Assembly: GCF_000315915.1 (NCBI RefSeq) | Contig: NC_020185.1 | Location: 558,001-622,000 of the forward strand | Source of the DNA: Henningerozyma blattae CBS 6284 | Lineage: Eukaryota > Ascomycota > Saccharomycetes > Saccharomycetales > Saccharomycetaceae | Direction of reading: 5' to 3' | DNA length: 64,000 nucleotides | Shown here: one piece after another, positions 12,528 to 16,263 of the stretch | How the letters are laid out: each line of letters starts with the position of its first letter | How positions within the stretch are numbered: position 1 is the stretch's first letter | The notes under the pieces: model-generated | Databases searched by the model: none | What the model saw: only the letters and a program-made list of their open reading frames with translations | Told to the model about the DNA's origin: nothing | Program-made: the position numbers and the translations under genes

Positions 12528-13448
12528 ATTATATATATATATAAACGATAATTTGCATATACGTAGTCTCACTTCATAGTATAATATTATAATATTCATT
12601 TACAAGAGCGATTGAATTATCATCATCAGCGATAGCTACTAATTGGTGGAAGGAGTCAGGGAAAGTAAACAGCCTTGTTATAAGTCACGAATGTCTTGTC
12701 ATGAAGACAAAGGCTCAAAGCAAAATTCAATACATAAAGTAATGATTCTGTCGTAGATTTAGCTACAGTATATAATAATTCTCTCTATAATTCTGTAGAT
12801 GTTACCCGGGTTTTAGTCAGAGCCAGGAATTAATATAAAATTAGATTGTTTCGTTAAACAGAATACCCATCTTCACAGAACGTTCCTCTTATATAAGACC
12901 GATGTCTCATCAGACACAAGCTTCCCGGACATAATACATATGTTCTCATCAGAACTAGCATTCTGGAAGATAACTCTTAACGAGCTGAATTGTAACAGCC
13001 GTTCCAATTCGTAGACTACACCTTCCACATAGTCTCTGCCGATGATAGTAGTATGGTACCTAAACATTTACCTATCATCCCACTTTTAGGGATAAGCTTC
13101 CGAAAGCCACCCTGTCTATTCTTTAGTCGTGAGCCTGCAGCCTCACTCCTTCAAGTACCTTAGGTTTCTTATAATCTCCGACTCCTCAGATATCTCTGTA
13201 TCTCTTAAGTCTTCATCTTGTCTCTGAATATATTCTTTCGTGTGCCTTTTTAGTATAAACTTATTCACAAGTATATTATCTTATTTATATCCTCTCGATC
13301 ACATGACCTGACCAGTTGTCCGTCACATGCCTTGTCTGGATATACCACAGCTTCAAGCAAGTTTCATTGAATAAAGGATGGCCATTTGCTAGAACTTTTG
13401 TATTAGCCGCTTTGGCGGAGCGTATCACGTGACTGCTGCGAATTGCAG
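12528..13448. other. Gene-poor interval 3' of CLN1, possible retroelement LTR remnant
   Basis: No convincing coding region. A nested stem-loop (AGCCTT at 12671-12676 with AAGGCT at 12710-12715; TGTCTT at 12692-12697 with AAGACA at 12704-12709) and a second hairpin beside TATATAAG (TGTCT at 12903-12907 with AGACA at 12912-12916) are present. Position next to tRNA genes is where yeast Ty elements insert, so degenerate LTR sequence is plausible, but I find no flanking duplication. Confidence 0.35.
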
Positions 13449-13455: not shown

Positions 13456-13468
13456 GAAATGTAAAATT

Positions 13469-13542
13469 TGATTTCGCCCAGGATCGAACTGGGGACGTTC
13501 TGCGTGTTAAGCAGATGCCATAACCAACTAGACCACGAAACC
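13469..13542 (-). tRNA. tRNA-Val (anticodon AAC)
   Basis: A 74-nt cloverleaf. The acceptor GGTTTCG pairs with CGAAATC (one G-U), the anticodon arm TCTGC/GCAGA encloses TTAACAC, and the T-arm CCCAG/CTGGG encloses TTCGATC; the discriminator is A. The sequence is almost identical to S. cerevisiae tRNA-Val(AAC). No intron. It lies 3 nt downstream of tRNA-Ser on the same strand. Confidence 0.97.
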
Positions 13543-13545
13543 AAA

Positions 13546-13627
13546 CGACAACTACAGGATTCGAACCTGTGCGGGCAGAGCCCAAGAGATTTCTAATCTA
13601 TCGCCTTAACCACTCGGCCAAGTTGCC
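13546..13627 (-). tRNA. tRNA-Ser (anticodon AGA)
   Basis: An 82-nt class II tRNA with a long variable arm (TGGGCTCTGCCCGC), B box GGTTCGAATCC, and acceptor GGCAACT paired with AGTTGTC (one G-U) plus G discriminator. It closely matches S. cerevisiae tRNA-Ser(AGA). The anticodon stem reads ATAGA/TCTCT, giving one U-C mismatch where S. cerevisiae has a full stem. It is the upstream member of a two-tRNA unit. Confidence 0.95.
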
Positions 13628-14880
13628 TCTTATTTATTGAAATTGTTGTAGACGAGATTGACTTTATACTCATCTACAAGTTGCTAACTAGAAATTATAC
13701 ATAACACTGAGCAACTGCTAGTTGCATACCTGTGAATATCGGTTCAATGCATAATCTCTACTAGTTAGCCAGCATTACTCAAACTGTGCACTCCTACCCT
13801 TATAAGTAAGTTTACAAACAGTCCAATTAAAGTAAAATGGGAAAGCTGGCGTTGACCTTTGAAAAGTATTTAAAGGCCAGCTTTTCCAGACTTAAGACAT
13901 AAATTTATAGTTCTTTCATATAGTTATTTAGTTTAAAAAGAACAACAATTATATTCGTAAGTTCGAAGTATTAACTGGTGTTAAGTTAAGAAGATTGTTA
14001 AGTTTAGTTTTGGTAACTACTATTTAAGTGTATCGTACTCCTAAGTTGGTTTACAACAGAAATGTTTTTCATGGTGGTACTATCAGTACACTATGTCAAG
14101 GGTTAGAAGCTTACAAGCCCTAACTAAATAAGAGACGTTCGTGTCAACATGTTGCAACGCGTAAACTCGCTTGTATATAAAGCGATGCCCATGAGGCATC
14201 TATATAGAATTACACAGAATAAGATAAGTAAGTTATAGTTATAAGAATAATCAGGGTTATAGTCATCTGAAAAATACTAGCCAGATCACTATATAATAAA
14301 ATTTAAAGCTTGGGTGTAAAAGGCAATCCCAAGAACCCTCACGGAATGACATTACCTTAGACTACTAAAATCTAAGCATATCAAGTGTCTCATATTCTAA
14401 TAAAGAGGTTTCCTCCATTTAAGGAATGCCGTATAAGTACCAGAATGAAGTTTGGATCCATGCTATGTCTTTGAAACATTGGTTTTCTAATATAAATCTT
14501 CTTGGTACTACTACAAAACTAACTTAGCCCTTTCTTTGTTTCAACTCCCACCCCCCCCTCCACAAGCATCTCTAATAAAAGGAAACCAATAGAAAATCTT
14601 GTACAATTTTTTTATTTTTGAGGAATACCTTATATTAAAGATGATCTAATTTGTTTAATAAATATGGTTCAATAAAAATCATTAGCTCGATTCCCTGTTC
14701 TTCAAATATCTAATATTAGGTTTTCCATTTAGCCCTTAGTATATGATGTGATAAAACTAAAATGTGATTAGAACCTCAGAAGATCTAGTTTACTAGATAT
14801 CACTTGTTCACACTTCGGAAGGATTCTGTTTCAGATGACTACTTTTCTTATATATTGGAATTGTTTGAGGTTTTCGAAGC

Positions 14881-14911
14881 CATGTATTTTCCCCGATTAG
14901 GAGTAATACAG
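14881..14911. promoter_or_regulatory. a-specific gene operator (alpha2-Mcm1 type) of the a-factor gene
   Basis: An alpha2-like half site CATGTATT (14881-14888), an Mcm1 P-box CCCGATTAGG (14892-14901) and a second, weaker inverted alpha2-like half site GTAATACAG (14903-14911). Layout and length match the operators of S. cerevisiae STE2, MFA1 and other a-specific genes, which Mcm1 activates in a cells and alpha2-Mcm1 represses in alpha and diploid cells. It sits 174 bp before the a-factor ATG. The spacing of the second half is one base off. Confidence 0.75.
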
Positions 14912-14977
14912 GGTCCATCAAGGTTGCCTATACAAAATGAAACATTTTCATCAATAGTGAAAATCTAATGAACAAAT

Positions 14978-14988
14978 TATATATAAAA
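14978..14988 (+). promoter_or_regulatory. TATA element of the a-factor gene
   Basis: TATATATAAAA between the operator and the ATG, about 100 bp before the start codon, a usual yeast distance. Confidence 0.6.
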
Positions 14989-15084
14989 GAGAGATAATTT
15001 TTTTTTAAAAGATTGTTGATCAATTATCTATTGATAAATAAAGTACCAACTAATTACGACTACCTTTTACTAAATAAAATTAAG

Positions 15085-15189
15085 ATGCAATACAACGCTC
15101 AAGCCGGTCAAAAAGAAACTTCATCTGAAAATAAAGATAATTATATTATTCCTGGTTTATTCTGGGACCCAGCATGTATCATTGTTTAA
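15085..15189 (+). CDS. MFA1: Mating pheromone a-factor precursor
   Basis: A 34-codon gene beginning MQYNAQAGQKETSSENKDN, followed by YIIPGLFWDPACIIV and a stop. S. cerevisiae MFA1/MFA2 precursors share the SSE-KDN leader end, the YII.G.FWDPAC peptide and a C-terminal CaaX box. Here the CaaX is CIIV, predicting farnesylation by Ram1/Ram2, removal of IIV, carboxymethylation by Ste14, Axl1/Ste23 cleavage between N and Y, and export by Ste6. The predicted mature peptide is YIIPGLFWDPAC, with Pro where S. cerevisiae a-factor has Lys. A consensus a-specific operator and TATA lie upstream. In S. cerevisiae CLN1 and ROT1 are adjacent with no pheromone gene between them. I cannot say whether this is MFA1, MFA2 or another copy. 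Confidence 0.96.
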   Translation: MQYNAQAGQKETSSENKDNYIIPGLFWDPACIIV

Positions 15190-16263
15190 GGCACTTAGAA
15201 TTCCCTGAATAGTACAAAAATACATACGTTACATAACAATATATAATAATTTAATGAAGAAATTGAACTATTTAAAAAAAATTTTTTTTTTAAAGTACTA
15301 CCATCTGGACTTACAAAATCTTGTTGAAATTATTTCGTAGGCCAGATAATGATACCTTGACATCCGTTTATTTGAACGGGACTAACTAATCGCATAGAAT
15401 TCTAGTATCATATTGGGATACTTACTTGAACATCATCATAATATATACCAAAGTATCGAATTGTACTAGACTTTGCTTATCACTATATATTCAAAGATAC
15501 ACTTTTCCAATTCTTGTATATATTTTATATATATATAGTCTGGTTTACAACTTTAATAATTTAAATATGAGATTTCAATAACCACTTGTCTCGTTTCTCT
15601 GGTCTCGTTTCTCTTGGCAAGAGTTGATGCGTGCCATCAGACTTTTACCTCATGTGTAAATAATTATACCAAATCATGCAAGATATAGATGATCCATATT
15701 TCAATGGAATCCTCTATTCATTGATACTACTTCATTTGACAAAAGACACATTCAAGTTTAAACAGATACACTTTCTCATATTCTTAAATGATTTTGATTC
15801 CCCAACATTCAAGTTAACTTACAAGGACTTTCAAGTAATAAAAAACAAAAAAAACTACATTAACATGAACTGATTAATACTGTATAGTATAAAGTGTATG
15901 CATACATTTCTTATTATACCCGATTTTACGCGTTTCTTGTTTATTTTAAACAAGTACTCTTATTAACAACCCTTTTCAGTTTCAATAAAATAATCATAAT
16001 AGATACTTGATTGGTAAATCGTATCTATTTATATATATATATATATATAATTATTTTTATCGTGTCCCTTTCTAGTTAGATCATTAATACTTGTTTGTTT
16101 GTTTGTTTTTTTTATTTTCTTTATTTTTATTGTACCTAAATTCAAACCCGTGCTAATTCCTCCGCACCGCGCTTAACGACGTAAATTTCACGTCTGTAAT
16201 AAAAGTTCCACATTCTAACAACACATTTATTATTCAACTTTATTCACAACATAACAACCCCAA
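15190..16263. other. AT-rich interval between a-factor gene and ROT1
   Basis: Holds the a-factor 3' region, scattered T and TA tracts (for example about 16030-16048) and the ROT1 promoter. A 65-codon frame at 15676-15873 is AT-composition-like, shows no family signature, and is not called. Confidence 0.5.

What the first reader, a model, noticed from the sequence alone, without database searches (positions are those of the whole stretch)
15085..15189. Unannotated-size a-factor pheromone gene with a variant mature peptide
A 34-codon gene encodes the predicted pheromone YIIPGLFWDPAC with CaaX CIIV. It is below usual ORF cut-offs. Pro at position 4 in place of Lys of S. cerevisiae a-factor could alter receptor recognition or backbone turn.
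Basis: partly seen in the sequence, partly recalled or inferred. Interest (0 to 1): 0.75.

Follow-up and report, generated by a model that had tools for sequence, protein, structure and literature searches.

The report
One of five proline-variant a-factor genes
This 34-codon yeast gene is one of five copies found in the genome that encode a precursor of the a-factor mating pheromone, and all five carry proline where most relatives found carry lysine, a change that would likely have to be matched by the yeast's a-factor receptor.

Summary
Window 15085-15189 encodes a 34-residue a-factor precursor: Pfam MFA1_2, 75.9 bits against a cut-off of 25. The yeast is Henningerozyma (Tetrapisispora) blattae CBS 6284, named through a sister copy. 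Three encode YIIPGLFWDPAC, two YIVPGLFWDPAC. The mature part shows strong purifying selection (pooled pN/pS 0.035).

An alpha2-Mcm1-like (a-cell-specific) operator lies about 200 bp upstream. Two strict operator patterns hit nine sites in the 14 Mb genome: three precede MFA copies, others STE2, AGA2 and an ASG7-like gene. The other two MFA copies match 11 of 12 core bases.

Pro4 is in 5 of 5 copies here and in 0 of 16 relatives retrieved (12 Lys, 1 Ser, 1 His, 2 unalignable). It is fixed in this genome and, in this limited sample, restricted to it. 'Unannotated' is not supported. This is an ordinary member of a known family; the five copies and the fixed Lys-to-Pro switch facing the one STE3 found are the interesting parts.

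The parts
15085..15189 (+). MFA (a-factor precursor) ORF, 34 codons plus stop
15085..15141 (+). predicted N-terminal pro-part MQYNAQAGQKETSSENKDN, expected to be cut off after Asn19
   Evidence: sequence; cut inferred from the S. cerevisiae precursor (recalled) and from the conserved DN junction
15142..15177 (+). predicted mature pheromone YIIPGLFWDPAC
15178..15186 (+). last three residues IIV of the CaaX box CIIV, predicted to be removed after farnesylation
   Evidence: Saccharomyces uvarum P0011 also ends CIIV
14881..14912 (.). alpha2-Mcm1-like operator CATGTATTTTCCCCGATTAGGAGTAATACAGG; core 14883-14910
   Evidence: 12 of 12 core bases, best of 103 other 600-bp window segments is 10; one of 5 such sites in the genome, control 0; with the fixed-spacing 31-base consensus it scores only 15 of 23, within the shuffled range
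14837..15190 (+). block (promoter plus gene) shared with the C1:425269 copy, 75% identical over 356 columns

Best explanation
The feature is an MFA gene for the lipopeptide mating pheromone a-factor of Henningerozyma blattae, one of five dispersed copies found, likely expressed only in a cells and predicted to be processed to farnesylated, methyl-esterified YIIPGLFWDPAC. In alpha and diploid cells the alpha2-Mcm1 complex would repress it through the operator at about -200. In a cells the 34-residue precursor would be farnesylated at the CaaX cysteine, trimmed of IIV, methylated by a Ste14-type enzyme, cut after Asn19, exported by a Ste6-type transporter and sensed by Ste3 on alpha cells. Shown here: the gene, the five copies, operator-like sequences, the selection pattern, one match each for STE3, STE2, a Ste24-type protease domain and an ICMT (Ste14-type) domain, and Pro4 in all five copies. 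Inferred: expression, processing, secretion, receptor activation. The five copies most likely raise pheromone dose, and the two near-identical 12-mers (Ile3 or Val3) are probably interchangeable. Pro4 most likely arose once, before the copies diverged (or was spread by gene conversion), and is tolerated or favoured because this yeast's Ste3 accepts an uncharged Pro-Gly turn in place of Lys-Gly.
For: Full-length Pfam MFA1_2 matches for all five copies, 74-85 bits, cut-off 25. Purifying selection, strongest on the mature 12 codons. Operator-like sites upstream of all five at 11-12 of 12 core bases; nine strict sites in the genome, six of them before MFA copies, STE2, AGA2 and an ASG7-like gene, reversed-pattern controls 0. 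STE3, STE2, Peptidase_M48_N, ICMT and an alpha-factor gene are present. Sixteen relatives from other sources share the precursor layout.
Against: No expression or peptide data. By the fixed-spacing consensus the operators of the window copy (15 of 23; 22% of shuffles reach it) and of C1:425269 (14; 64.5%) are not above chance. The window copy differs from the other copies in the early pro-part (MQYNAQAG against MQ.TTQAT), near where the first N-terminal cut falls in S. cerevisiae (recalled). The Pfam families used for Ste24 and Ste14 also match bacterial control genomes. Farnesyltransferase, Rce1, Axl1 and Ste6 were not searched for.
Confidence: 0.93

Rival explanations
1. This copy is a redundant or decaying paralogue: the frame is intact but it contributes little, and the C1:304900, C2 and C10 copies supply nearly all a-factor.
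For: Its operator and that of its closest relative C1:425269 are the weakest under the fixed-spacing consensus, its pro-part departs most from the family pattern, and its Pfam score is lower than those of the C2, C1:304900 and C10 copies. An LTR-like repeat and tRNA genes lie upstream.
Against: The frame and all mature residues are intact; against C1:425269 the 12 mature codons show 3 synonymous and 0 amino-acid differences; its operator core is 12 of 12 with symmetric spacing.
Confidence: 0.2
2. The Ile3 and Val3 forms are two functionally distinct pheromones rather than interchangeable isoforms.
For: Two 12-mers are encoded by separate loci; a precedent for two a-factor types in one yeast is Saccharomycopsis fibuligera (PMC5106798, passages).
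Against: Ile/Val is conservative and both residues occur at position 3 in the relatives; only one STE3 match was found.
Confidence: 0.07
3. The ORF is a chance frame.
For: Very short ORF; no expression data.
Against: Full-profile Pfam match, four paralogues, relatives in other yeasts, selection and a rare operator.
Confidence: 0.01

Closest known systems
S. cerevisiae MFA2 and MFA1 a-factor precursors (Pfam PF17317 MFA1_2)
   Same: Precursor layout MQ...SSE.KDN + 12-residue peptide + CaaX, and 10-11 of 12 mature residues (MFA2 retrieved as P0004; mature MFA1 peptide confirmed in PMC7035247, passage)
   Different: Pro4 for Lys4; CIIV or CIIA for CVIA; five copies found here against two in S. 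cerevisiae (recalled)
Tetrapisispora phaffii TPHA_0I01280 (P0008)
   Same: Same family, 61% identity to the window query
   Different: Mature YIVKGVFWDPEC: Lys4, Val6, Glu11
Kluyveromyces lactis a-factor, recalled as WIIPGFVWVPQC
   Same: Would share Pro4-Gly5
   Different: Different core; recalled only: no Kluyveromyces protein came back and one search found the string in no held paper
Saccharomycopsis fibuligera MFA1/MFA2 (PMC5106798, passages)
   Same: More than one a-factor type in one genome, differing by one residue
   Different: Described there as tandem clustered; here the copies are dispersed over three contigs

Membership tests
a-factor precursor family (Pfam PF17317 MFA1_2) | Match over the curated Pfam cut-off | tested here: met
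   75.9 bits, cut-off 25, profile 1-34 of 34
a-factor precursor family (Pfam PF17317 MFA1_2) | Short precursor ending in a CaaX box after a 12-residue aromatic peptide with DPxC | tested here: met
   YIIPGLFWDPAC-IIV
a-factor precursor family (Pfam PF17317 MFA1_2) | Conserved KDN junction before the mature peptide | tested here: met
   Alignment of 21 sequences; D and N of the junction are invariant
a-factor precursor family (Pfam PF17317 MFA1_2) | Lys at mature position 4 (common, not defining) | tested here: not met
   Pro in 5 of 5 H. blattae copies; Lys in 12 of 16 relatives
a-specific gene under alpha2-Mcm1 control | alpha2-Mcm1 operator upstream | tested here: met
   Core 12 of 12, rare in the genome; but with the fixed-spacing consensus 15 of 23, not above shuffles
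a-specific gene under alpha2-Mcm1 control | Transcribed in a cells only | not testable with these tools
   No expression data
a-factor pheromone | Farnesylated, methylated, secreted, activates Ste3 | not testable with these tools
   Needs mass spectrometry and mating or reporter assays

The most novel reading that the evidence does not exclude
The H. blattae lineage swapped the near-constant Lys4 of a-factor for Pro in every one of its five pheromone genes while its Ste3 changed with it: a pheromone-receptor specificity shift that pre-organises the peptide as a Pro-Gly turn and helps isolate the species from Lys4 relatives. A lead from one comparison: Asp50 and Asp56 of S. cerevisiae Ste3 (recalled sequence) are Asn and Gly in H. 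blattae.
Probability: 0.25. Interest if true: 0.6.

Novelty: new member of a known kind. Interest (0 to 1): 0.4.

Why it matters
a-factor is the textbook farnesylated pheromone, and how such short lipopeptides change together with their receptors is still little tested. Here a change at one position is fixed across five diverged paralogues facing the one receptor gene found, a clean natural test of whether position 4 sets specificity. It also shows that tiny CaaX genes can form dispersed families of which at least one member is deposited only as a 'hypothetical protein'.

Tried and rejected
Chance ORF: rejected by the family match, paralogues and selection pattern. A divergent sixth copy: a search with the diverged Naumovozyma castellii member P0018 re-found only the same five. 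Solved relatives: none for the precursor at E up to 10 or for Ste3 at E up to 0.01. NCBIfam: no match, as expected of a prokaryote library.

Literature. One search (species name with a-factor) gave 0 papers; searched peptide strings and found only the S. cerevisiae string, in PMC7035247 (passages). Searches looked for comparative a-factor papers; opened as passages only: PMC7243462 and PMC5106798. PMC3507789 (H. blattae genome 14.1 Mb, post-WGD) was seen as passages. PMC10569646 (passages) cites Srikant et al. for finding a-factor genes in Saccharomycotina (listed there as bioRxiv 2021 with a Current Biology 2023 DOI). That paper is not held and may already list these copies, so no claim is made that they are not in print. 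Searches were seen as listings only; one search gave nothing on topic.

Dropped or weak rows. One search scanned two of the five copies on the wrong strand (0 families); repeated on the right strand. In the position-4 tally P0017 and P0018 cannot be aligned at that position and are counted as such (the script read them mechanically as Val and Phe). The strict-operator hit at C5:1078716 lies inside a long coding ORF and is treated as chance. The Ste3 comparison is against a typed, recalled sequence.

Full report
What is there. Window 15085-15189 (+) translates to MQYNAQAGQKETSSENKDNYIIPGLFWDPACIIV and a stop. The upstream frame is open for 29 codons without an ATG, and A is at -3. Pfam MFA1_2 (PF17317) matches positions 1 to 34 of 34 at 75.9 bits, cut-off 25. 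The window is G000:C1:558001-622000 of a 14,041,469-base, 10-contig genome. A protein identical to the C1:304900 copy, on a contig of 2,697,332 bases (the length of C1), is deposited as 'hypothetical protein TBLA_0A01280 [Henningerozyma blattae CBS 6284]', so the yeast is H. blattae, formerly Tetrapisispora blattae (genome 14.1 Mb, PMC3507789, passages).

Five copies. A six-frame search of the whole genome gives five matches at E up to 10 (the tool calls such counts lower bounds): C1:573085 (window), C1:425269, C1:304900, C2:1161118 (minus strand) and C10:109707 (minus strand). Each is a clean 34-codon ORF. Mature peptides: YIIPGLFWDPAC in the window, C1:425269 and C2 copies; YIVPGLFWDPAC in the C1:304900 and C10 copies. 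CaaX boxes are CIIV, CIIV, CIIA, CIIA and CIIV in the order window, C1:425269, C2, C1:304900, C10. All five pass the Pfam cut-off at 75.9, 74, 84.1, 85.1 and 83.9 bits in that order. A search with a divergent family member re-finds the same five only. The window copy shares a block of promoter plus gene with C1:425269, 75% identical over 356 columns. The C1:304900 and C10 copies share a downstream neighbour gene, 77% identical over 667 bases; Pfam calls it TENA/THI-4 in one (33.8 bits, cut-off 22) and just under the cut-off in the other (20.6). These two loci look like products of one segmental duplication (inference).

Selection. Over the ten pairs, pooled pS is 0.57 and pN 0.082 for the whole ORF (ratio 0.145); for the 12 mature codons pS is 0.60 and pN 0.021 (ratio 0.035). 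Pairs share branches and the sites are few, so these are descriptive. Pairwise pS is 0.36-0.76, so the copies are well diverged at silent sites, yet Pro4 is in all five.

Regulation. Upstream of the window gene, at 14881-14912, lies CATGTATTTTCCCCGATTAGGAGTAATACAGG: two alpha2-like half-sites around an Mcm1-like box (consensus recalled). Scored on 12 core bases with spacers of 4 or 5 bases, the five genes score 12, 11, 11, 12 and 12 (window, C1:425269, C2, C1:304900, C10), while the best score in 103 other 600-bp window segments is 10, reached in 5 of them. Against this: with a fixed-spacing 31-base consensus the C2, C1:304900 and C10 sites stand out (19, 22 and 18 of 23; 0 of 200 shuffles reach them), but the window copy (15; 22% of shuffles) and C1:425269 (14; 64.5%) do not; these two have five-base spacers on both sides. 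Genome-wide, TGTA-N5-CC-N6-GG-N5-TACA has 5 sites and TGTA-N4-CC-N6-GG-N5-TACA has 4; the reversed-pattern controls have 0. Of the 9 sites, 3 precede MFA copies (window, C1:304900, C10), 1 STE2, 1 an AGA2 gene (Pfam AGA2, 90.8 bits) and 1 a 144-aa ORF between SET2-like and YJL171C/Tos1-like genes, which by recalled S. cerevisiae gene order would be ASG7 (no Pfam match over its cut-off). Two lie near a MATalpha1-like locus and one inside a helicase-like coding ORF. In the 1501 bases of locus L013 before the STE3 match, where no such operator is expected, the best score is 9 of 12.

Pathway. The genome gave one match each for STE3, STE2, the Peptidase_M48_N domain of Ste24-type proteases and ICMT; the last two families also match some bacterial control genomes. 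The alpha-factor gene found encodes five identical HWLRLGRGEPLY repeats. Farnesyltransferase, Rce1, Axl1 and Ste6 were not searched for.

Position 4. A profile search seeded with the five copies, recalled S. cerevisiae MFA1 and MFA2 and a recalled K. lactis peptide returned 18 proteins among 20 candidates: the 2 H. blattae entries and 16 others, 3 of them without a source name. At mature position 4 the 16 have Lys in 12, Ser in 1 (Kazachstania africana), His in 1 (Lachancea fermentati), and 2 cannot be aligned (Naumovozyma castellii P0017, P0018); none has Pro. Tetrapisispora phaffii has Lys. In this sample Pro4 is confined to H. blattae and fixed there. The sample is limited: the tool needs shared five-residue words and no Kluyveromyces protein came back. 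I recall the K. lactis a-factor as WIIPGFVWVPQC, which would put Pro4 elsewhere in the family; that rests on memory (one search found no held paper with it).

How it likely works. The precursor is predicted to follow the S. cerevisiae route: farnesylation, removal of the last three residues, methylation, N-terminal cuts ending after Asn19, export, sensing by Ste3. Pro-Gly is a classical turn pair, and I recall that turn constraints at residues 4-5 of S. cerevisiae a-factor have been discussed as favourable (no paper seen here). Pro4 would thus keep or stiffen a turn while losing the only positive side chain of the peptide. If Lys4 normally meets an acidic receptor residue, H. blattae Ste3 should have lost it. 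Against a recalled S. cerevisiae Ste3 (225 of 309 identical), Asp50 is Asn and Asp56 is Gly in H. blattae. But 20 columns differ in charge class; among them the receptor loses three acidic residues and gains four. This is a lead, not evidence of co-evolution.

Verdict. The gene is real and an ordinary member of a known family. Beyond the finding as given are the five-gene family, the two isoforms, the operators and the fixed Lys-to-Pro change. The claim 'unannotated' fails. Prior listing of these genes in Srikant et al. 2023 is possible and could not be checked.

Noticed in passing
Naumovozyma castellii NCAS_0F01250 (P0017) and NCAS_0B07140 (P0018): Two relatives keep the a-factor pro-part (MQPSTQATQKD..AENKDN) and a CVIV CaaX box, but the mature part is entirely different (HNMVINCLSNICC / DFVFNCLSNISC), beside two normal a-factor genes (P0005, P0006) in the same species. 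They could be diverged pheromones or decayed genes.
   Followed up: partly
G000:C1:1867763-1867790 (L040) and G000:C1:1880919-1880946 (L041): Two of the nine strict alpha2-Mcm1-like sites lie 13 kb apart near a MATalpha1-like gene and a VAC17-like gene (an HML-like setting by recalled S. cerevisiae order), one between the 3' ends of hexokinase-like and SPB1-like genes. They are candidates for a recombination enhancer for mating-type switching.
   Followed up: partly
window 12776-13347: A 572-base LTR-like dispersed repeat next to tRNA genes; 31 matches in the genome including itself, several full length at 78-89% identity, one of them about 3 kb from the C10 MFA copy.
   Followed up: partly
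window 13468-13627 (-): tRNA-Val(aac) and tRNA-Ser(aga) genes only 2 bases apart on the same strand, which suggests one dicistronic transcript.
   Followed up: no
G000:C2:1220459-1220782 (L019): The alpha-factor precursor has five identical HWLRLGRGEPLY repeats and lacks the Pro-Gly pair of S. cerevisiae alpha-factor, while a-factor here has gained Pro-Gly.
   Followed up: no
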